The notes under the pieces are model-generated. The model was not told the origin of the DNA. It ran no database searches and saw only the letters and a program-made list of their open reading frames with translations. A program made the position numbers and the translations under genes. Below, in pieces: positions 3 to 63,782 of a stretch of 63,782 nt of DNA (its first letter is position 1; each line of letters begins with the position of its first letter). The DNA lies in assembly GCA_009839485.1 (NCBI GenBank), contig VXPQ01000039.1:1-63782 (forward strand), written 5' to 3'. Origin of the DNA: Bacteroidetes bacterium SB0662_bin_6. Lineage in GTDB: Bacteria > Bacteroidota > Rhodothermia > Rhodothermales > VXPQ01.

Positions 3-890
3 GATGGAAGTATGCTGGCCTCGGGAGGCAATGACCATACCGTCAGGCTGTGGGAAGCGGCTACGGGGGACAACACCGCAACGCTCAAGGGGCATACCGG
101 GCGTGTCCATTCGATAGCCTTTTCGCCTGATAGCAGTACCGTGGCGTCCGCGTCCGATGACGGAACCGTCAGGCTGTGGGATGCGGCTACGGGAGACAGC
201 ACCGCAACGCTCGAGGGGCATACCGGACGTGTCTATTCGGTAGCCTTTTCGCCCGGTGGAGACATGCTGGTTTCGGGAGGCGATGACCATACGGTCAGGC
301 TGTGGGATGCGGTTACGGGGGACAACACCGCAACGCTCTTCGGGCATACGTTTTGGGTCAGTTCGGTAGCCTTTTCGCCCGATAGCAGTACCGTGGTGTC
401 CGCGTCCTATGACCATACGGTCAGGCTGTGGGATGTCGCTACGGAGGACAACATCGCAACGTTCGAGGGGCATACCGGGAGTGTTTATTCGGTAGCCTTT
501 TCGCCCGATGGAAACATGCTGGTGTCAGGGGCGCGGGATGGCTTCATTAATCTGTGGGACGTATCGGCGGGCATAACGACGCATGCATTCAATGCCGAGG
601 GGGAGATTCCAACGGCCTTTCATCTGCGCGGCAACTATCCCAATCCGTTCAATCCGTCCACGCGCGTGGTCTTCGACCTGCCTGCGGCAGCCGAAGTGAC
701 GGTGCATGTCTTTGACGTATTGGGAAGGAACGTGATGGTCACAGACCCCGTGTCTGTATCGGGTGGTCGGGACCATTCGCTTGAAGTGAACGCATCCTCG
801 TTGCCTTCGGGCGTATACGTCTATCAGGTAAGGGCGCAGGCGGGTTCGGACATGCTTATCCGGTCAGGGCGCATGATTCTTGCGAAATGA
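3..890 (+). CDS. WD40-repeat protein with T9SS sorting domain, 5'-truncated by the window
   Basis: The reading frame is open from the first complete codon at base 3, so the true start lies upstream. About 4.5 WD40 blades are visible. Each is about 42 residues (126 bp) with core HTVRLWD and the spacer VAFSPD, and they are very alike at DNA level. A linker then leads to a C-terminal type-A T9SS sorting domain (NYPNPFNPST, ending SGVYVYQVRAQ). Such proteins are normally carried through the outer membrane by the type IX system and kept at the surface or released. The propeller probably mediates protein binding; no catalytic residues are seen. The near-identity of the blades suggests recent tandem expansion. 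Confidence 0.85.
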   Translation, partial: DGSMLASGGNDHTVRLWEAATGDNTATLKGHTGRVHSIAFSPDSSTVASASDDGTVRLWDAATGDSTATLEGHTGRVYSVAFSPGGDMLVSGGDDHTVRLWDAVTGDNTATLFGHTFWVSSVAFSPDSSTVVSASYDHTVRLWDVATEDNIATFEGHTGSVYSVAFSPDGNMLVSGARDGFINLWDVSAGITTHAFNAEGEIPTAFHLRGNYPNPFNPSTRVVFDLPAAAEVTVHVFDVLGRNVMVTDPVSVSGGRDHSLEVNASSLPSGVYVYQVRAQAGSDMLIRSGRMILAK

Positions 891-16122: not shown

Positions 16123-17922
16123 ATGTATAGCGTACGCCTGCGGTATCCCGTAACCGTGTCATCACGGCTTCTCCCTTGTGCGGCTCCAGTGCTCCGCTCC
16201 CCCGGAATCTTCACGAAAGCGATAAGGGGGAATGTTTTTTCCGAGCTTTCTGTTCGTTTCGCAGGGTATGCTCTTACCAGCCTTGTGCTTCTGTTCGTCG
16301 TTTCTCCCACAGAGGCTTCTTCGGCTCGATTCTTCCAGCAGCAGGCCGGGGATGGAAAAGCCGCGTCCGCTAATGTGGAAGTGGAAGACGCCCATGATGG
16401 AGTTTCCCGAACGGTGCGCATTACAGGACGGGTGCCTTGTGTGGATGGAGAAGCCGCCGGGTATCCCTGCAAGGACATGGATTTGCTGGCCGTAGTCCCG
16501 CGAGAGGATATGACGGGATTTCCATGCCCTGATCCGGCGGACTGCTTCAGTGACATTTGGGGCTGGACTGATCCGGTGACGAGGATAGAGTATGCACTGC
16601 TCGCCCGGGTCGACGGCGTCGCATTCTTCGACTTGAGCGATCCCGAAAATCCCTCGTTCGTCGGAATGTTGCCGATGACGCCCGGTAGCCAGGCCAGTTG
16701 GTGGCGCGACGTAAAGGTTGTGAACGATCATGCCGTTATTGTGGCCGATTTTGTCGGCCCGCATGGTATGCAGGTGTTCGATCTTTCGCAACTTCGGGAT
16801 GTAACGGATGCTCCGGCGACCTTCGAGCCTACCGCCCTGTACGACGCCTTCGGTCCGGCGCATAATGTGGTGGTCCACGATGAGACGGATCATGTATATA
16901 TCGTGGGTATACAGGGCGCTCAGCAGACACCGTCCGGATTTCCATGTGGTGCGGGCCCGCATATCGTGGACATGAGCGATCCGGCGCAGCCCACGTTCGC
17001 AGGGTGCTACCATTCCTCCGTGAGAGGTATTACAGCCGGTAGTTACACGCACGATGCGCAATGCGTTCGATACAGCGGACCGGATACGAGACATCAAGGG
17101 AAAGACATTTGCTTCAGTTCCGATGAGACGGGCGGTGCCATTACGGATGTGACGAATCCGGCTTCGCCTGAAGAACTCGGTGTGTTCGGATACCCGAATT
17201 TCGCCTACACGCACCAGGGATGGCTGACGGAAGACCACCGCTATCTTTTCGTAAACGACGAACTGGATGAGGATGATGGCGCCAGGACTCGAACCATGAT
17301 CTTCGATGTGCAGGAGTTGGATGATCCCGTTTTTGTGGGTGTCTGGCATGGGCCGACCACTGCCATAGATCATAACCTGTATATCCGCGGGGATAAATTG
17401 TACGAAGCAAACTATACGGCCGGATTGCGCGTCATGGATATTTCCTACGACGGCGAGTTGTCGCTCGACGCGATCCGCGAAGTGGCGTATTTCGATGTGC
17501 TTCCTCAATCGAACAGGCCAAACTTTGCAGGCTCCTGGAGCAGTTATCCCTATTTTGAAAGCGGAATCATTGCGGTTTCCAGCATGAATGACGGGTTATT
17601 TATTCTTGCGCCGCCGTCCTTATCGGTAGGCGTAAGCGCAGAGAGTGAGGAATTACCCGCGGAAGTGGCGCTTCTCGGCAATTATCCCAATCCGTTCAAT
17701 CCAGAGACGATGATACGCTATGCATTGCCGCAGAGCAGTAAGGTGCGTCTTGCAGTGTACGATTTGCTCGGGCAGGAAGTGGCGGTGCTTGTCGACGGTT
17801 CCCGGCCCGCGGGCCATCACACGGTACGGTTCGACGGGGGTGATTTGCCGAGTGGTTCGTACGTGTACCGCTTACAGGTCGGGGAGGAGATCGTGGCCCG
17901 CACGATGGCGCTGGTCAAATAG
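16123..17922 (+). CDS. choice-of-anchor B / LVIVD-repeat protein with T9SS sorting domain (copy 1)
   Basis: A 599-residue secreted protein. An unusually long basic N-terminus (about 47 residues) precedes the hydrophobic signal (ALTSLVLLFVVSPTEASS). The body holds LVIVD-like propeller repeats, e.g. VAFFDLSDPENPSFVGMLP, HIVDMSDPAQPTFAGCY and LRVMDISYDG, typical of choice-of-anchor B proteins. The C-terminus is a type-A sorting domain (NYPNPFNPETMIRYALP ... SGSYVYRLQVG). ATG 16123 has a GGAGG site 7 bp upstream. No catalytic centre is evident; it is probably a surface or matrix protein. A close paralogue follows after 73 bp. Confidence 0.88.
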   Translation: MYSVRLRYPVTVSSRLLPCAAPVLRSPGIFTKAIRGNVFSELSVRFAGYALTSLVLLFVVSPTEASSARFFQQQAGDGKAASANVEVEDAHDGVSRTVRITGRVPCVDGEAAGYPCKDMDLLAVVPREDMTGFPCPDPADCFSDIWGWTDPVTRIEYALLARVDGVAFFDLSDPENPSFVGMLPMTPGSQASWWRDVKVVNDHAVIVADFVGPHGMQVFDLSQLRDVTDAPATFEPTALYDAFGPAHNVVVHDETDHVYIVGIQGAQQTPSGFPCGAGPHIVDMSDPAQPTFAGCYHSSVRGITAGSYTHDAQCVRYSGPDTRHQGKDICFSSDETGGAITDVTNPASPEELGVFGYPNFAYTHQGWLTEDHRYLFVNDELDEDDGARTRTMIFDVQELDDPVFVGVWHGPTTAIDHNLYIRGDKLYEANYTAGLRVMDISYDGELSLDAIREVAYFDVLPQSNRPNFAGSWSSYPYFESGIIAVSSMNDGLFILAPPSLSVGVSAESEELPAEVALLGNYPNPFNPETMIRYALPQSSKVRLAVYDLLGQEVAVLVDGSRPAGHHTVRFDGGDLPSGSYVYRLQVGEEIVARTMALVK

Positions 17923-17995
17923 GTGGTTGGCCGTTCTTTTCCGGGGTATTCACCAGAGTTTTTTCCCGCGCGCTGACAAAAAACGGGGAGGCAAA

Positions 17996-19780
17996 ATGCA
18001 TAACGCACGCATGCGGTATACCGTAAACGTTTCCCGGCCTCTATCTTACACGATTAAAGGGCTCCACTCCCCCGGAATCTTCGCGAAAGCGGTAGGGGGG
18101 AATATTTTTTCCGGTTGTTCCGTCCGTTTTGCACGGTACGCTTTTGCCGGTCTTCTATTTCTGTTCGTCGTTTCTAATGCAGAGGCTTCTTCGGGTCGAT
18201 TTTTGCAGCAGCAGGCCGGGGATGGCAAGGCCGCGTCGGTGAGCGTGGATGACGCGCACGACGGAGTTTCCCGAACGGTGCGCATTACAGGGCGGGTGCC
18301 TTGTGTGGACGGAGAAGCCGCCGGGTATCCCTGCAAGGACCTGGATTTGCTGGCCTTCGTACCCCGGGAGGAGATGGAGGGATTTCCATGCCCTCGTTCA
18401 GGATACTGCTTCAATGATATCTGGGGCTGGACCGATCCCGTTACGGATGTCGAATACGCGCTGCTTGGCCGGGTCGACGGCGTTGCGTTCTTCGACCTGA
18501 GCGATCCGGAGAATCCCTTGTTCGTCGGTATGTTGCCGAAGACACCCGATGCCTGGTCCAGTTCCTGGCGCGACGTAAAGGTGGTGAACGATCATGCCGT
18601 GATTGTAGCCGACGCCGCTGGCGCACACGGGATGCAGGCGTTCGATCTTTCGCAACTCCGGGATGTGACGAATCCTCCGGCAACCTTCGGGCCTACCGCC
18701 CTGTACGACGCCATCCGTTCGGCGCATAATGTAGTGGTCAACGATATATCGGATCATGTATATATCGTGGGCATACAGGGTGATCATGAGGCGCCGGGTG
18801 GCTTTGCCTGCGGCGCGGGGCCGCATATCGTGGACATGAACGATCCGGCGCAGCCCGCGTTCGCAGGGTGCTACACCCCGTCGCGGGGACGGGGGTATAC
18901 GCACGATGCGCAATGCGTTCGATACAGAGGGCCGGATACAAGATACGCCGGGAAAGATATTTGCATCAGTTTTGACGAGGCGGGCGGAGCCATTACGGAT
19001 GTGACGGACCCGGCTTCGCCCGAAGAACTGGGTCTGTTCGAATATCCGCGCATTGGCTACACGCATCAGGGGTGGCTGACGGAAGATCACCGCTATCTCT
19101 TCGTGAACGACGAACTGGACGAAGGCCATGGCTATGCTGATTCGACCCGAACCCTGATCTTCGATGTGCAGAAGCTGGACGACCCTGCTCCTGTGGGCGC
19201 TTGGCATGGGCCGACCCCTGCCATAGATCATAACCTGTACATCCATGAAGGCAAGTTGTACGAAGCGAACTATCAGGCCGGATTGCGCGTCATGGATATT
19301 TCCTACGACGGTGCGTTGTCGCCCGACGACATCCGCGAAGTGGCTTATTTCGATGTCTATCCTCAATCGGATCTACCAGGCTTTATAGGCTCCTGGAGCA
19401 GTTATCCCTTTTTCAAGAGCGGAATCATTGTGGTTTCCAGTATGGATGACGGGTTATTCGTTCTTGCGCCGCCGTCCTTATCGGTAGGCGTAAGCGCAGA
19501 GAGCGAGGAATTGCCCGCTGAAGTGAAGCTTACAGGTAACTACCCCAATCCGTTCAATCCGGAGACGACGATACGGTATGCCTTGCCGCAGGCCGGTAAA
19601 GTCCGTCTTGTGGTGTACGATCTGCTCGGGCAGGAAGTGGCGGTACTCGTCGACGGTTCCCGGCCTGCGGGCCATCACACAGTGCGGTTCGACGGGGGTG
19701 ATTTGCCGAGTGGTTCGTACGTGTACCGCTTACAGGTCGGGGAGGAGATCGTGGCCCGCACGATGACGCTGGTCAAATAA
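17996..19780 (+). CDS. choice-of-anchor B / LVIVD-repeat protein with T9SS sorting domain (copy 2)
   Basis: A 594-residue paralogue of the preceding gene. Architecture and most residues are shared, including the long N-terminal region (SPGIFAKAVGGNIFSGCSVR), the LVIVD blades and the sorting domain. The last roughly 70 bp of coding sequence are almost identical to copy 1, pointing to recent duplication or gene conversion. ATG 17996 has a GGGGAGG site. The frame is open further upstream into copy 1, but that extension is a shadow. The longest differences lie in the central loops, so the copies may present different binding surfaces. Confidence 0.88.
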   Translation: MHNARMRYTVNVSRPLSYTIKGLHSPGIFAKAVGGNIFSGCSVRFARYAFAGLLFLFVVSNAEASSGRFLQQQAGDGKAASVSVDDAHDGVSRTVRITGRVPCVDGEAAGYPCKDLDLLAFVPREEMEGFPCPRSGYCFNDIWGWTDPVTDVEYALLGRVDGVAFFDLSDPENPLFVGMLPKTPDAWSSSWRDVKVVNDHAVIVADAAGAHGMQAFDLSQLRDVTNPPATFGPTALYDAIRSAHNVVVNDISDHVYIVGIQGDHEAPGGFACGAGPHIVDMNDPAQPAFAGCYTPSRGRGYTHDAQCVRYRGPDTRYAGKDICISFDEAGGAITDVTDPASPEELGLFEYPRIGYTHQGWLTEDHRYLFVNDELDEGHGYADSTRTLIFDVQKLDDPAPVGAWHGPTPAIDHNLYIHEGKLYEANYQAGLRVMDISYDGALSPDDIREVAYFDVYPQSDLPGFIGSWSSYPFFKSGIIVVSSMDDGLFVLAPPSLSVGVSAESEELPAEVKLTGNYPNPFNPETTIRYALPQAGKVRLVVYDLLGQEVAVLVDGSRPAGHHTVRFDGGDLPSGSYVYRLQVGEEIVARTMTLVK

Positions 19781-58919: not shown

Positions 58920-59261
58920 ATGATGGATTCCGACGACAGGCCCTGGGGCCGCTGGGAAGCATACCTGAACGAACCGGGGTATCGGGTCAAACGCATTATC
59001 GTGCATCCCGGGAAGCGGCTGTCTCTTCAGAAACATGCGCACCGCCGGGAACATTGGGTGATTGTTTCCGGCGAAGGTCTTTTTACCTTAAATGAGACCC
59101 GGCGGCGCGTGGTGGCGGGGGATACGCTTTTTATCGATAAGGGGGATATTCACCGTGTCGAAAACGATGGGCGGGAACCGCTGATCATCATCGAGACCCA
59201 GCTCGGACTGTGTCTTGAGGACGATGTTGTTCGGCTGGAGGATGATTTCGGGCGGGCCTGA
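58920..59261 (+). CDS. cupin-domain protein, mannose-6-phosphate isomerase type II-like
   Basis: A 113-residue single cupin. RPWGRWEAYLNEPGYRVKRI and the metal motif SLQKHAHRREHWVIVSGEG (HxH and Glu-His) match the C-terminal domain of bifunctional mannose-6-phosphate isomerase/GDP-mannose pyrophosphorylase. The third His is in DKGDIHRVENDG. It could isomerise mannose 6-phosphate or another sugar phosphate; alone it lacks the nucleotidyltransferase domain. It starts 6 bp after nhaC, so it is probably in the same transcript. Confidence 0.85.
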   Translation: MMDSDDRPWGRWEAYLNEPGYRVKRIIVHPGKRLSLQKHAHRREHWVIVSGEGLFTLNETRRRVVAGDTLFIDKGDIHRVENDGREPLIIIETQLGLCLEDDVVRLEDDFGRA

Positions 59262-59262
59262 T

Positions 59263-59531
59263 TAGGATCTGTTAACACTATACAGCGGCGCTCTGCGGGG
59301 CCTATTTTCCTGCCAGGCCAGGCGCCGTGAGCGCAGTGTGGCCCAGCCACATAAGCGAGCGGCAACGCCGCATGGCGGGAAAATAGACCCCGCCCTTCGG
59401 GTTCCGCCGGTCACGGCGTCACTCGTCGTTGCTCGTCGCTCATTTGGAACCACCAAACTTCGCTTCTCGCGCCTTGATTGACGCCGTGCCTGACGGAACA
59501 GAGCATCGCTGTATAGTGTTAACAGACCCTA
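59263..59531 (+). mobile_element. 265-bp terminal-inverted-repeat element (MITE-like), complete copy
   Basis: The left end GGATCTGTTAACACTATACA and the right end, read in reverse, GGGTCTGTTAACACTATACA, continue to GCG on both sides and differ at one base. Both ends are flanked by TA, as in TA-targeting IS630/Tc1-type insertions. Inside, CGGGGCCTATTTTCCTGCCA (59296-59315) pairs with 59373-59392 at 18 of 20 positions, giving a long internal hairpin. No open reading frame for a transposase exists. A second copy starts at 63677 in the same orientation. Confidence 0.75.
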
Positions 59532-59535
59532 GGCC

Positions 59536-61503
59536 CTAGATCACGCGATCCACGCCCCCGTCGATGGGTACCTGAGCGCCTGTAGTGGCCCGAAACGCGT
59601 CGCCGGCCATGACGGAAATGAGGCGTCCCACATCCGCAGACCGTATTTCCGTGTTGAGGAGGTTTTTGGTTTTGTATTCCTCCACCGTCATGTTATAGCG
59701 CTTCGCCGAGCGTTCCAGGGCTTCGTCGGTCCATACCCCGGTGTCGAAGACCGCGTCCGGGTGTACGACATTCACGCGCACGCCGTCGGCGGCCAGTTCC
59801 AGTGCTGCTACACGCGCCAACTGGGTAATGCCGGCCTTGCTGACCGAGTACGCCGCTGCTCCCGGGCCGGGGGCGGCATAGTTGCGTGATCCAACCACGA
59901 TGATGGAGGGACGAATGCCCAGTTTCAGATAGGGGATCGCGATTTTCATAAACCGCTGCGTGGCGGTCAGGTTGACGGCCAGCATCCGGTTCCATGCCGC
60001 ATCGTCCTGTTCTTCGATGCGTTCTCCCGACTGGAAGATGCCGGCGTTGCAAACGATGATGTCGAGGCCGCCGAATGTAGTCACCACCTGATCTACAGCG
60101 GCCTGCATTGCGCTGTCATCGGTTACGTCGCATACGATCCCGGTCATTCCCTCGAGGGCATCGACGACGCCGGGATCGATGTCTATTCCCGCCACGGTGG
60201 CGCCGTCGCGGGCAAGAGCTTCGCATGCGGCTTTACCGATACCGCTGCATGCGCCGGTGACGATAGCGATTTTTCCCTGATGTTCTTTTGCAGCGCCTCT
60301 TTTGCCCAGTTTCGCCTGTTCGAGCGACCAGTATTCCAGGTCAAAAATTTCCTGCTCCGACAAAGCCTGCCATCCGCCGAGAGATTCACCGGTTTGAATG
60401 GCCTGACGGGTATGGCGCGCAATGTCGGTAACGATTCCGCATTCCCTGACACTGCTGCCGAAGGCGATGCACCCGTTCTCTTTCCAGACGGCCATGCGTG
60501 GGGCCGGATCAAGCATGTGCAGTCCCTCGGTTTTGTGGGCTTCGTAATAGGCCGCGTAGTCCCTTGCGAATTCGGCTACTTCAGGTACGTGCTCTTCCGG
60601 GCTTGCGGCCACTATGGCGGGGATGCGCTTGGTACGGATTACATGATCCGGCGTGATGGGCCCCCGCGTGGAGATGTCGGCTATATCCTTGCGGCTTGCA
60701 TAGCCCTGAGCGCTTGCCGATCGGTCGAGCATGGCCAATTGCGCCGAGCCGCGCGCCTCGGACACCGCCCGGCGGATACGCGCCAGATCCGGCAGGTTCA
60801 CGTCGCGTTGCGCTTTGGGGTGGCTTGTCCGGCCATGTTTGGCGATGTACGCTTCGGCGCGGCTCACCAGTTCGATCATGTTTTCGTAGGCTACCCTGGC
60901 GTCATCGCTCCATGTGAATATGCCATGGTGCATCAGGATGATGCCTTTGTACCCGTCCGGATCGATGCCCCGGATCGCTTCATACACCTGTTTGGCCAGG
61001 ATGAAGCCGGGCATCACGTACGGCAGGATCAGGCAGTCGGAGCAGATCTCCTGCATGATGGCTTCCCCTTGCGGATTATTCGTAAGGGTAACCATCGCAT
61101 CGGCATGGGTATGATCTACGAATTTGGCCGGAACGATGGCGTGCAGGATAGCCTCCACCGACGGCGAGGGGGCCGACGGGTCCAGCATGAACGAGCGTAA
61201 TTGCCGCGTCATTTCCTCATCGGACAATGCTTCCAGGTCGGCCAGGCGTTTCGTTTCGTCGAGCCGTAACGCGGGGAATCCCGGTTTCTCGATGGTTTTC
61301 AGATCCCATCCGCTGCCTTTCACATAGAGCACGTCCACGTTGCGTCCCAGCAAGTCCTGCACCACGGCCTTGACCGATGTGTTGCCGCCTCCGTGCATTA
61401 CCAGGTATTCGTCCGATCCCAGCAGGCGCGAGGTGTACACGCGCAACGCCAGATCGTCGCCGGCGCTGGCTTGTGCCTCCTGATCGTTCCACAAACTGTG
61501 CAT
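59536..61503 (-). CDS. bifunctional class II aldolase / short-chain dehydrogenase
   Basis: A 655-residue fusion. The N-terminal class II aldolase domain (about 15-250) shows MHGGGNTSVKA, zinc ligands in FVDHTHADAMVTL, and MHHGIFTW. The C-terminal short-chain dehydrogenase (about 425-655) has the cofactor loop VTGACSGIGKAA, CNAG in IIVCNAGIF, and the catalytic YSVSKAG. Members of this type split rhamnulose 1-phosphate or a similar keto-sugar phosphate and oxidise the lactaldehyde or a sugar. Third gene of the minus-strand cassette, 7 bp after the UPF0261 gene. Confidence 0.92.
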   Translation of the reverse strand: MHSLWNDQEAQASAGDDLALRVYTSRLLGSDEYLVMHGGGNTSVKAVVQDLLGRNVDVLYVKGSGWDLKTIEKPGFPALRLDETKRLADLEALSDEEMTRQLRSFMLDPSAPSPSVEAILHAIVPAKFVDHTHADAMVTLTNNPQGEAIMQEICSDCLILPYVMPGFILAKQVYEAIRGIDPDGYKGIILMHHGIFTWSDDARVAYENMIELVSRAEAYIAKHGRTSHPKAQRDVNLPDLARIRRAVSEARGSAQLAMLDRSASAQGYASRKDIADISTRGPITPDHVIRTKRIPAIVAASPEEHVPEVAEFARDYAAYYEAHKTEGLHMLDPAPRMAVWKENGCIAFGSSVRECGIVTDIARHTRQAIQTGESLGGWQALSEQEIFDLEYWSLEQAKLGKRGAAKEHQGKIAIVTGACSGIGKAACEALARDGATVAGIDIDPGVVDALEGMTGIVCDVTDDSAMQAAVDQVVTTFGGLDIIVCNAGIFQSGERIEEQDDAAWNRMLAVNLTATQRFMKIAIPYLKLGIRPSIIVVGSRNYAAPGPGAAAYSVSKAGITQLARVAALELAADGVRVNVVHPDAVFDTGVWTDEALERSAKRYNMTVEEYKTKNLLNTEIRSADVGRLISVMAGDAFRATTGAQVPIDGGVDRVI

Positions 61504-61510
61504 GAGTATC

Positions 61511-62740
61511 CTATTGTTCGATCAGATGGATCAGCGTTCGTACGGCTTCCTCGATGAAGGCCGGATCTTCTGCGCCGTAATCCAGCTCACGCAATTCAAT
61601 GGAGGCAGGCATGGTGCTGCGCAGCGTATCGAAGAAAACGGTATCGCTTTCCTTGTCGACAAGTGGTCCGCCGGGAACGGAATACCGGCTGACCCCCTGT
61701 AGCGGCAGCATAAAAACAGTCTTTTGCTTGCTGTGGGCGAGGCGGCGGGTAATATCCGTGGCCACCTTGCGGATTTCGTCCGGCCCGAGTCGGGGGGCGA
61801 ACACGACCGGGCTGTGGAAGACGTAGGCGTGATGCTTGTAGGCCTCCGGCGCTTCGTTCGGGGTGTGCAGCAGCAGCCCGATGTGTTCGGCGCCGCCCGG
61901 ACAAATTACCTGTGGCAATCCCAGTTTTCCGGCTACGGTCAGACGTTCGGGGTCGTGCGAAGCACGTAATCCGTCGTATACGTCGTCGGCGATTTCTCCG
62001 AGACCGTAGTCGAAGACCGCCTTGATGATACCCTCCCGCATCATCTGTTCCATGGCTCGTCCCCCGGCCCCGATCGCATGGAAGGTGATGACCTCGTAGC
62101 CTGCTTCGTGAAACAGGTCGATGGCGTGCATGGCGCCATGGGTCAGGACCCCGAGATTGGTCATACCGATGGTTCCCTTGCTGCCCGCTTCGGCAGTGAT
62201 GACGCGTTCGCTCTTCTGGGCCATTCCCACAGCGGCTCCTGCGGCATTCGCCAGGATTTTTCTCGAGAACGGGTTGAGGCCCAGAATGTCGCTGACCGAG
62301 AACATCATGGTGATGTCCTTGATATCGACAAAGGGTTCGGTGTCCCCGGACGCGGCCGTCGAAAGCATGATTTTGGCGAATCCGTAAGGCAGCGCCTGCA
62401 TGACTTGCGAACAGGTCGAGGTGCCCTGGGTGCCGCCCATGGCCAGCAGCGCGTGGATTTTGTGTTCCAGGACCAGATCCAGCAGTATTTTTTGCGCTCC
62501 CCGGACGAGATAAGGTCCGATATCTTCGCGCGTGGGGTTTTTCAGCAATGCATCCGGGTCGCCTCCCCCTGCACGAATCACCGTAGCGGTATCGATGTGG
62601 ACGGGAACGGCCGCGGGTCCGACCACGCCGATATTGACCAGAAGGGCTTCTTCTCCGAGGGCTTCTATTTCCTGGCGTACGAAGTCCGCTTCCGCGCCCT
62701 TCGTATCCATCGTGGCCAATACGGCAATGGTTTTCGGCAT
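61511..62740 (-). CDS. UPF0261 / Tm-1-like ATP-binding domain protein
   Basis: A 409-residue protein starting MPKTIAVLATMDTKGAEADF, the hallmark of UPF0261. GGTQGTSTCSQVMQALPYG, KIMLSTAASGD, ITMMFSVSDILGLN, VITAEAGSKGTIGMTNLG and FHAIGAGGRAMEQMMREG follow. It is homologous to the N-terminal domain of the tomato resistance protein Tm-1, which binds ATP. The bacterial function is unknown. It lies 32 bp after the TIM-barrel gene, which corresponds to the C-terminal half of Tm-1. Confidence 0.92.
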   Translation of the reverse strand: MPKTIAVLATMDTKGAEADFVRQEIEALGEEALLVNIGVVGPAAVPVHIDTATVIRAGGGDPDALLKNPTREDIGPYLVRGAQKILLDLVLEHKIHALLAMGGTQGTSTCSQVMQALPYGFAKIMLSTAASGDTEPFVDIKDITMMFSVSDILGLNPFSRKILANAAGAAVGMAQKSERVITAEAGSKGTIGMTNLGVLTHGAMHAIDLFHEAGYEVITFHAIGAGGRAMEQMMREGIIKAVFDYGLGEIADDVYDGLRASHDPERLTVAGKLGLPQVICPGGAEHIGLLLHTPNEAPEAYKHHAYVFHSPVVFAPRLGPDEIRKVATDITRRLAHSKQKTVFMLPLQGVSRYSVPGGPLVDKESDTVFFDTLRSTMPASIELRELDYGAEDPAFIEEAVRTLIHLIEQ

Positions 62741-62772
62741 GATCGTGTGGCTTGCTGGCGCCGGTGTGGATG

Positions 62773-63642
62773 TTACCCGGCAGGGTTCGTGAAGCGCAGG
62801 GCGGCGAATTCCCGGGCCGCCGCCGATACGGCGCGTTCTATGGGGAGGCGTTCCGTGGAGGAGCCGGTCCAGAAACCATGGCCGGACGTGTGGTCCAGCA
62901 TGTATTGCGCATCGACCGGATTTTCCATGGCTGCGCCGTGCGCAACGAGGATGACCTCGGGATGAACCTTGCGCACAGCCTGATAGGCTTCTTCGGTTTG
63001 TTCGGCGGTCTCCTCGATGGTTAATCCGCTGTCATATCCCTTAAGCCCCCCTTTCGTCGTGCCCGCATGATAGCAAAAAATATGCGGTTTGGCCTGCTCG
63101 CACATGGCCAGCGCATCTTCCATGGTGAACGCCAGACCGATGGTCACCATGTCCATTTCTTCTCTGGCCAGTTTCAGCATCTCGATTTCATTCCGATAGG
63201 TGATGCCGGCGCTGGTCATTACCCGGTATATCTCACTGTCGTGATCCACATAGCTGATGGAGGGGCCGATATTCGAAACCGACTGCACGCCCATGGCCTT
63301 GCACTCGTTTAACACCATCCGCATATCCTTGAGGGGATCGTTTGCATTCAGGCAGGCGCAGACGAACGCATCGCCCTGCAGCGCAGGCATGATGTCTTCC
63401 CGGGTGTAGTCCAGCGTTTGTTTGTTCGAATCGAGGATAGGCCACATCATCGACATGGTGCCCATGCCGTTGGCGCGCAATCGCGCCCCGGAAAACGTAT
63501 TGATACAATCGACGCCGGCGGATTCCAGCAGTTTAGCGACCAGACCGCTGCCCGCACTGGCGATCATTACGGGAATGCGCTGTGCCACCTTGGCTTGCAG
63601 GCGGGCGAGAATATGTTCTGTGGTAAGACGATGAGTGATCAT
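62773..63642 (-). CDS. phosphoenolpyruvate hydrolase family TIM-barrel protein
   Basis: A 289-residue protein starting MITHRLTTEHILARLQAKVA. It has a PEP mutase/hydrolase-like barrel: IPVMIASAGSGLVAKLLESA, GVDCINTFSGARLRANGMG, GVQSVSNIGPSISYVDHDSE, HIFCYHAGTTKGGLKGYDSG, VILVAHGAAMENP and GHGFWTGSSTERLPIE. The family name is by similarity only; no reaction has been shown for this group to my knowledge. First gene of the cassette; a longer frame to 63678 would run into the flanking element. Its partner gene encodes UPF0261. Confidence 0.9.
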   Translation of the reverse strand: MITHRLTTEHILARLQAKVAQRIPVMIASAGSGLVAKLLESAGVDCINTFSGARLRANGMGTMSMMWPILDSNKQTLDYTREDIMPALQGDAFVCACLNANDPLKDMRMVLNECKAMGVQSVSNIGPSISYVDHDSEIYRVMTSAGITYRNEIEMLKLAREEMDMVTIGLAFTMEDALAMCEQAKPHIFCYHAGTTKGGLKGYDSGLTIEETAEQTEEAYQAVRKVHPEVILVAHGAAMENPVDAQYMLDHTSGHGFWTGSSTERLPIERAVSAAAREFAALRFTNPAG

Positions 63643-63676: not shown

Positions 63677-63782
63677 AAGGGCCTGTTACCACTATGCAGC
63701 GGCGCTCTGCGGGGCCTGTTTTCCTGCCAGGCCAGACGCCGCGAGCGCAGTGTGGCCCAGCCACATAAGCGAGCGGCAACGC
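63677..63782 (+). mobile_element. second copy of the terminal-inverted-repeat element, cut by the window end
   Basis: Over 104 aligned bases (63679-63782 against 59265-59368) I count seven differences and no gaps. The left terminal repeat is GGGCCTGTTACCACTATGCA. Same orientation as the first copy, so the two form direct repeats around the three-gene cassette. The expected TA before the end reads AA here. Confidence 0.8.

What the first reader, a model, noticed from the sequence alone, without database searches (positions are those of the whole stretch)
59536..63642. Bacterial two-gene counterpart of plant Tm-1 linked to a keto-sugar aldolase/dehydrogenase
Tomato Tm-1 is a fusion of a UPF0261 N-terminal domain and a TIM-barrel C-terminal domain. 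Here the two halves are separate adjacent genes and are followed at 7 bp by an aldolase/short-chain dehydrogenase fusion. The linkage suggests that the unexplained UPF0261/TIM-barrel pair acts in breakdown of a sugar acid or keto-sugar, and gives a biochemical context for an orphan pair known chiefly from an antiviral plant protein. The family assignments are by sequence recognition; the pathway is inferred.
Basis: partly seen in the sequence, partly recalled or inferred. Interest (0 to 1): 0.62.

Follow-up and report, generated by a model that had tools for sequence, protein, structure and literature searches.

The report
Rhamnose-operon look-alike with new kinase
A marine bacterium carries a three-gene operon that copies the layout of its own rhamnose-degrading operon (isomerase, kinase, aldolase/dehydrogenase) but fills the first two places with the bacterial relatives of the two halves of the tomato antiviral protein Tm-1, suggesting that this little-understood pair is an enzyme module that phosphorylates and primes a sugar-like nutrient.

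Summary
In detail: three co-directional genes, PF09370 TIM barrel, UPF0261, and a class II aldolase/short-chain dehydrogenase (SDR) fusion, gaps 32 and 7 bp. Separate bacterial halves of Tm-1 were already published. The aldolase linkage recurs: 20 of 78 surveyed UPF0261 loci in five phyla (16 fused; 4 with only the SDR half plus an LsrF-like aldolase), in two gene orders and two aldolase/SDR clades. The same genome has a canonical rhamnose operon, RhaI–RhaB–RhaEW–Lut; the window operon has the same layout, with PF09370 where the isomerase sits, UPF0261 where the kinase sits, and a RhaEW paralogue (31% identical). UPF0261 is no longer a total orphan: N. aromaticivorans Saro_1862 was solved with acetovanillone bound, and a single-component acetovanillone kinase, MarK, is published from that species; I infer they are one protein. 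Best reading: UPF0261 is the kinase of a ketose-like catabolic cassette, PF09370 the preparing enzyme, and the fusion cuts a ketose-1-phosphate to DHAP plus an aldehyde that it oxidises. Substrate and TIM-barrel reaction are unknown. The linkage is confined to one UPF0261 clade; elsewhere the family has other partners.

The parts
62773..63642 (-). TIM-barrel protein, PF09370 (called PEP_hydrolase-like), 289 aa, ATG at 63642; first gene of the operon; place taken by the isomerase RhaI in the rhamnose operon of the same genome
   Evidence: PF09370 E 9e-58; model pLDDT 92; best solved match 2p10, Z 37.6
61511..62740 (-). UPF0261 (Tm-1-like) protein, 409 aa; proposed ATP-dependent kinase; place taken by rhamnulokinase RhaB in the rhamnose operon
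   Evidence: PF06792 and PF23189 over cut-off; model pLDDT 93.5; matches Tm-1 3wrw (Z 44.4) and Saro_1862 9mpy (Z 33.7, 29% identity)
59536..61503 (-). Class II aldolase + short-chain dehydrogenase fusion, 655 aa, RhaEW paralogue
   Evidence: NF006196 852.6 bits over cut-off 831; TIGR02632 RhaD_aldol-ADH 419.5 bits, under its cut-off 567.75; 30% BLASTP identity to the RhaEW of the same genome, 31% in the multiple alignment
60784..61503 (-). Aldolase domain (about residues 1-240): conserved GGGNTS, KGSG, PSxE, HxH and HG motifs
   Evidence: invariant columns N41, S64, G65, S115, E117, H131, H133, H193 in 12 relatives; all but E117 (Asp in the own RhaEW) shared with RhaEW
59539..60303 (-). SDR domain (about residues 401-655): S539, Y552, K556 invariant; Asp441 at the end of the second strand points to NAD(H)
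62741..62772 (-). 32-bp gap between TIM and UPF0261 genes
61504..61510 (-). 7-bp gap between UPF0261 and aldolase/SDR genes

Best explanation
The operon is a three-gene catabolic cassette for a sugar or sugar-like compound, built on the plan of a rhamnose operon. UPF0261 is the ATP-dependent kinase. The PF09370 TIM barrel, which probably handles a phosphorylated intermediate, prepares the substrate or its phosphate, for example by isomerisation. The aldolase domain cuts the resulting ketose-1-phosphate between C3 and C4 into DHAP and an aldehyde, and the fused NAD-dependent SDR oxidises the aldehyde. Shown here: family assignments, conserved catalytic residues, recurrent linkage, the parallel rhamnose operon, and swapping of the aldolase half for LsrF while the SDR half stays. 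Taken from literature: RhaEW converts L-rhamnulose-1-P to DHAP and L-lactate; a one-component acetovanillone kinase (MarK) exists in N. aromaticivorans. Inferred: MarK is Saro_1862, the window UPF0261 is a kinase, the TIM barrel does an isomerase-like step, and the substrate is ketose-like.
For: (1) G000 holds a canonical operon, RhaI-type isomerase > RhaB > RhaEW > LutA/LutB, and the window operon has the same order with a RhaEW paralogue in third place. (2) RhaEW is biochemically proven: L-rhamnulose-1-P to DHAP and L-lactate with NAD+ (PMC3870299). Its conserved histidines and the GGGNTS, KGSG and PS motifs are retained in the window protein. (3) The UPF0261 fold equals Tm-1 and Saro_1862 with bound acetovanillone, and acetovanillone catabolism in N. 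aromaticivorans starts with the single-component kinase MarK (PMC13101465). (4) In none of the 20 linked loci was an FGGY or PfkB kinase, or a RhaI-like isomerase, detected in the same operon; the only such gene found (L009) is 5.4 kb away on the other strand. (5) Linkage recurs in five phyla, in both gene orders, with aldolase/SDR proteins of two well-supported clades. (6) In L013, L014, L015 and L020 only the SDR half remains (58-66% identical to the window protein), with no class II aldolase domain in the locus; an LsrF homologue (L013: NF006081, 428.9 bits, cut-off 297) is present in all four and a ribulose-phosphate-3-epimerase-like gene in three. From my own knowledge of LsrF, its substrate P-HPD is cut at the bond that corresponds to C3-C4 of a ketose-1-phosphate. 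(7) The TIM model resembles phosphate-binding barrels (4ml9, Z 20.9) and has an invariant S261/E264/R265 segment at the last strand.
Against: No activity or substrate has been measured for the window proteins. MarK = Saro_1862 is inferred from species, substrate and date; the MarK paper was not available. MarK's substrate is an aromatic ketone, not a sugar, and the window protein is only 29% identical to Saro_1862. The linkage is absent in many UPF0261 loci, whose neighbours are diverse. No transporter or regulator is conserved with the trio in the Rhodothermales genomes. The TIM barrel is structurally closest to lyase/mutase barrels rather than known sugar isomerases. In L006 two xylose-isomerase-like (PF01261) genes with Tat signals lie upstream in the same run of genes, so an isomerase of another family is not excluded there.
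Confidence: 0.6

Rival explanations
1. The operon degrades a non-sugar compound, for example an aromatic or aliphatic hydroxyketone. UPF0261 phosphorylates it as MarK is thought to do with acetovanillone, and the aldolase/SDR fusion performs a retro-aldol cut and oxidation on that scaffold.
For: The only UPF0261 structure with a small-molecule substrate has acetovanillone bound; MarK acts on several aromatic monomers (title). The Thermomicrobium pair sits near PEP/pyruvate-binding and PEP-utilising genes, as in two-component aromatic kinases.
Against: No carboxylase, ring-cleavage or other aromatic gene was seen in the linked operons that were annotated; the aldolase is a RhaEW paralogue with retained motifs; LsrF and an RPE-like epimerase replace it in some genomes, which fits sugar phosphates.
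Confidence: 0.15
2. The substrate is a five-carbon deoxysugar or diketone of the AI-2 kind: kinase and TIM barrel yield 5-deoxyribulose-1-phosphate or P-HPD, cut to DHAP plus acetaldehyde (aldolase form) or acetyl-CoA (LsrF form). A narrower version of the best explanation.
For: The L013 neighbour is a strong LsrF (335 bits to the E. coli LsrF structure; over the NF006081 cut-off); the same SDR family accompanies both aldolase types.
Against: No LsrK-like FGGY kinase was found in the operons and no LsrG was seen, so the substrate may be any ketose-1-phosphate. An alpha/beta hydrolase and a sulfatase near some loci suggest other sources.
Confidence: 0.12
3. UPF0261 and PF09370 form a metabolite-repair or regulatory pair, and adjacency to aldolase/SDR only reflects co-regulation.
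For: The pair occurs in very diverse neighbourhoods and is often placed with unrelated oxidoreductases, cupins or DUF7133 proteins.
Against: UPF0261 contexts include many catabolic operons with transporters; the pair's place in the operon coincides with isomerase-kinase in the parallel rhamnose operon; a kinase relative is reported.
Confidence: 0.1

Closest known systems
RhaI-RhaB-RhaEW L-rhamnose operon (PMC3870299; also in this genome, G000 C1, locus L164)
   Same: Order TIM-barrel enzyme, kinase, aldolase/dehydrogenase; third gene a paralogue with the same domain fusion and retained aldolase and SDR motifs
   Different: Isomerase and FGGY kinase are replaced by PF09370 and UPF0261, which belong to other families; the third gene fails the RhaEW cut-off; no Lut lactate genes follow
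Tomato Tm-1 and plant Tm-1-like proteins
   Same: Both domains are homologous; the UPF0261 half has the same fold as 3wrw (Z 44.4)
   Different: Two separate genes here; TIM gene before UPF0261, the reverse of the plant fusion; linked to a catabolic enzyme
Saro_1862 (9mpy), probably MarK, N. aromaticivorans
   Same: UPF0261 fold over the whole length, shared DTK and GGxxG motifs, 29% identity
   Different: Distant by identity; aromatic substrate bound; no aldolase/SDR known with it
Mll9387 (2p10), PF09370
   Same: Same fold, Z 37.6, 31% identity
   Different: Uncharacterised; the depositors' name 'putative phosphonopyruvate hydrolase' is untested
LsrF, AI-2 degradation
   Same: A very close homologue sits in the operon of four genomes where the aldolase half is missing
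   Different: No LsrK or LsrG identified; not present in the window

Membership tests
RhaEW (TIGR02632, rhamnulose-1-P aldolase/lactaldehyde dehydrogenase) | Score over the curated cut-off 567.75 bits | tested here: not met
   419.5 bits; the paralogue on C1 scores 946.4
RhaEW (TIGR02632, rhamnulose-1-P aldolase/lactaldehyde dehydrogenase) | Class II aldolase domain fused to SDR, with the conserved histidines and SDR Ser-Tyr-Lys | tested here: met
RhaEW (TIGR02632, rhamnulose-1-P aldolase/lactaldehyde dehydrogenase) | Encoded in a rhamnose locus with RhaB and an isomerase | tested here: not met
   Window has UPF0261 and PF09370 instead; the true RhaEW of the genome is with RhaI and RhaB
RhaEW (TIGR02632, rhamnulose-1-P aldolase/lactaldehyde dehydrogenase) | Activity on L-rhamnulose-1-phosphate | not testable with these tools
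   needs purified enzyme
NF006196 (PRK08324.2-4, aldolase/SDR of unknown substrate) | Score over cut-off 831 bits | tested here: met
   852.6 bits
UPF0261 | PF06792 and PF23189 over cut-off, Tm-1 fold | tested here: met
UPF0261 kinase (MarK-like) | ATP-dependent phosphorylation of a small molecule | not testable with these tools
   Homology to Saro_1862 only; MarK = Saro_1862 inferred, paper not held
Tm-1-like fused protein | UPF0261 and TIM domain in one polypeptide | tested here: not met
   two ORFs 32 bp apart
PF09370 | Score over cut-off 33.8 bits | tested here: met
   195.9 bits
PEP mutase / isocitrate lyase superfamily | Mg-binding Asp-x-Asp just after strand 3 | tested here: not met
   Positions 99-101 are NAN in the window and never Asp in 53 relatives; D102 is conserved. 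The register rests on the strand position in the model, not on a structural overlay
PEP mutase / isocitrate lyase superfamily | Barrel fold similarity | tested here: met
   Z 17-19 to 5unc, 2dua, 1xg4; similar Z to other barrels such as IGPS, so not specific

The most novel reading that the evidence does not exclude
UPF0261 plus PF09370 is a previously unrecognised module that does the work of isomerase and kinase for ketose-like nutrients. Plant Tm-1-like proteins would then be fused descendants of this metabolic enzyme pair, with antiviral binding gained secondarily.
Probability: 0.3. Interest if true: 0.75.

Novelty: new variant of a known kind. Interest (0 to 1): 0.55.

Why it matters
It gives a specific, testable biochemical role to a gene pair found in bacteria, archaea, fungi and land plants but hardly characterised, and a rational list of substrates (ketoses and their 1-phosphates) to try. 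If right, it identifies a further family of sugar-type kinases outside FGGY, PfkB, GHMP and DUF1537, and says what plant Tm-1 was before it became an antiviral factor.

Tried and rejected
(a) The name 'PEP hydrolase' for the TIM barrel: no support found; the Asp-x-Asp metal motif of the PEP mutase/isocitrate lyase superfamily is absent. (b) Simple RhaEW identity: rejected, under the cut-off and in a separate clade. (c) Linkage of the pair with aldolase/SDR as a property of the whole UPF0261 family: rejected; in the tree the label lies in one clade of 34 rows. Chloroflexota relatives carry a divergent FBA-like gene instead, whose first zinc-ligand motif is lost, so I do not count it as a DHAP aldolase. 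(d) Searching the PDB with the aldolase-domain profile for FucA or RhaD: only 3m4r (uncharacterised) was found. (f) Papers naming Saro_1862: none held. (g) Generic SDRs near UPF0261 in L050, L064 and L079 were not counted as linkage.

Full report
WHAT IS THERE. The window is one whole contig of a 2.92-Mb genome whose nearest named relatives are Rhodothermales. On the minus strand it ends with three co-directional genes: a PF09370 TIM barrel (63642-62773), a UPF0261 protein (62740-61511) and a class II aldolase/short-chain dehydrogenase fusion (61503-59536), with gaps of 32 and 7 bp. The fusion passes NCBIfam NF006196 (852.6 bits, cut-off 831) and fails the rhamnulose aldolase/dehydrogenase model TIGR02632 (419.5, cut-off 567.75). 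In the sister genomes L003, L004 and L005 the same three genes stand together, with upstream genes that differ between L004 and the other two, so the operon appears complete.

KNOWN BEFORE. That bacteria carry UPF0261 and the TIM domain as separate proteins, and that plants acquired and fused them, was published in 2016 (PMC5028733). [quoted passage not shown] I infer that MarK is Saro_1862; the MarK paper itself is not held.

SURVEY. One scan of genome contigs gave 79 loci. My own gene calling found UPF0261 in 78; the TIM gene is immediately next to it in 70. The aldolase/SDR, or its SDR half, is co-directional and within three genes in 20: 16 fused (Rhodothermota 3, Planctomycetota 10, Bacteroidota 2, Chloroflexota 1) and 4 with the SDR only (Verrucomicrobiota 3, Planctomycetota 1) (three further hits to generic SDRs were not counted). 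Both orders occur, TIM-UPF-fusion and fusion-TIM-UPF. On the UPF0261 tree all of these lie in one clade of 34 rows (support 100), and 'linked or not' needs 6 changes. The linked fusions form two clades of their own (each 100), apart from RhaEW and from the unlinked sequences sampled. In 296 genomes of the window's phylum, 114 have some aldolase/SDR gene and 18 have UPF0261, but only the window's copy passes the NF006196 cut-off, and from the listed coordinates no other aldolase/SDR shares a contig with UPF0261. So the link is specific to particular aldolase/SDR subfamilies. The loci were found by similarity to the window protein, so they are biased towards its relatives, and shared ancestry makes them non-independent.

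ALDOLASE SWAP. In L013, L014, L015 and L020 the SDR half is kept as a stand-alone gene (58-66% identical). No class II aldolase domain of this kind is in the locus, and a genome-wide search found only the SDR half. An LsrF homologue is in all four operons, with an RPE-like gene in three. The L013 LsrF passes NF006081 (428.9, cut-off 297) and matches the E. coli LsrF structure with 335 bits. From general knowledge, LsrF cuts phospho-HPD into DHAP and acetyl-CoA, the bond corresponding to C3-C4 of a ketose-1-phosphate. Two unrelated aldolases for the same bond beside the same SDR is what a ketose-1-phosphate intermediate would predict.

PARALLEL OPERON IN THE SAME GENOME. On contig C1 (L164) lie, in order of transcription, an L-rhamnose isomerase-like gene (579 bits to TIGR02629, cut-off 646.75), an FGGY rhamnulokinase-like gene (416.5 to TIGR02627, cut-off 527.95), RhaEW (1028 bits to NF006189, cut-off 634) and LutA/LutB-type lactate genes. 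RhaEW is proven to convert L-rhamnulose-1-P to DHAP and L-lactate with NAD+ (PMC3870299). The window operon repeats the plan, TIM barrel then kinase candidate then aldolase/dehydrogenase, with a RhaEW paralogue 31% identical that keeps GGGNTS, KGSG, PS, HxH and HG. No FGGY or PfkB kinase and no RhaI-like isomerase was detected in the operon of any of the 20 linked loci; the only FGGY gene in those loci, in L009, is 5.4 kb away on the other strand. L006 does have two xylose-isomerase-like genes with Tat signals upstream. If the aldolase needs a 1-phosphate, UPF0261 is the only kinase candidate in the operon.

STRUCTURES. The UPF0261 model (pLDDT 93.5) matches Tm-1 3wrw (Z 44.4) and 9mpy (Z 33.7; 29% identity). 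Residues D12-T13-K14, G102-G103, P118, G120, K123, T128, D142, D151, H221, D244, H309 and R317 are invariant or nearly so in 66 sequences. The TIM model (pLDDT 92) matches 2p10 (Z 37.6), then 4ml9, a barrel noted for its phosphate site (Z 20.9), then PEP mutase/isocitrate lyase barrels (17-19) with IGPS and others close behind. The Asp-x-Asp of the PEP mutase superfamily is not present, so the family name is not supported.

SOLO UPF0261. UPF0261 occurs without the TIM gene nearby in L087 (Thermus, where a class II aldolase gene is the next gene), L089, L091 and L094. The UPF0261 half can therefore work alone, as MarK appears to.

VERDICT. Confidence: domains and linkage, near certain; fusion working like RhaEW on a phosphorylated ketose, about 0.7; UPF0261 as kinase here, about 0.65; TIM as isomerase-like step, about 0.4; the overall reading (a kinase-driven, RhaEW-like cassette) 0.6. 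What would change it most is the MarK paper's locus tag and ATP-site data, and a kinase assay.

Noticed in passing
window 59262-59535 and 63678-63782: A ~270-bp repeat with inverted ends of about 33 bp (MITE-like) lies just downstream of the operon; a second copy in the same orientation is cut by the contig end just upstream, so the operon is bracketed. The genome-wide search gave 57 matches (about 40 separate places), many at contig ends, which probably broke the assembly.
   Followed up: partly
L082:7932-13830 (G000 contig C20): Second UPF0261+PF09370 pair in the same genome, with a cupin and a ThuA/DUF7133 protein, 38% and 35% identical to the window pair; copies of the MITE-like repeat lie close by.
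   Followed up: partly
L164:6297-13337 (G000 contig C1): Canonical rhamnose operon RhaI-RhaB-RhaEW-LutA-LutB in the same genome; the RhaI and RhaB genes score under the equivalog cut-offs.
   Followed up: yes
L057, L045, L046, L053, L054, L055, L058, L043: Chloroflexota and relatives: the pair sits with a divergent FBA-like protein lacking the first zinc-ligand motif, often with a formyltransferase and, in several, pyruvate-dehydrogenase-type E1/E2 and SorC-type regulator genes.
   Followed up: partly
L087:7116-9852 (Thermus thermophilus plasmid): UPF0261 without a TIM partner, between a creatininase-family gene and a class II aldolase gene, followed by a tripartite tricarboxylate transporter.
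   Followed up: no
L032:12444-17462 and L008, L012, L025, L035, L040, L060, L065, L070, L078: Large DUF7133 proteins (in L032 with PA14, cupredoxin and cytochrome c domains) recur near UPF0261 pairs.
   Followed up: no
window 58920-59261: Stand-alone mannose-6-phosphate isomerase C-terminal cupin (113 aa), convergent with the operon.
   Followed up: no
window 5-508 and 16162-19443: A 126-bp tandem repeat at the contig start, and a pair of tandemly duplicated coding regions about 1.86 kb apart.
   Followed up: no
literature, PMC2364660: A Brucella UPF0261 gene (BAB2_1127 / BMEII0128) differs between vaccine strain S19 and virulent strains and was hit in a signature-tagged mutagenesis screen; a metabolic kinase role would offer an explanation.
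   Followed up: no
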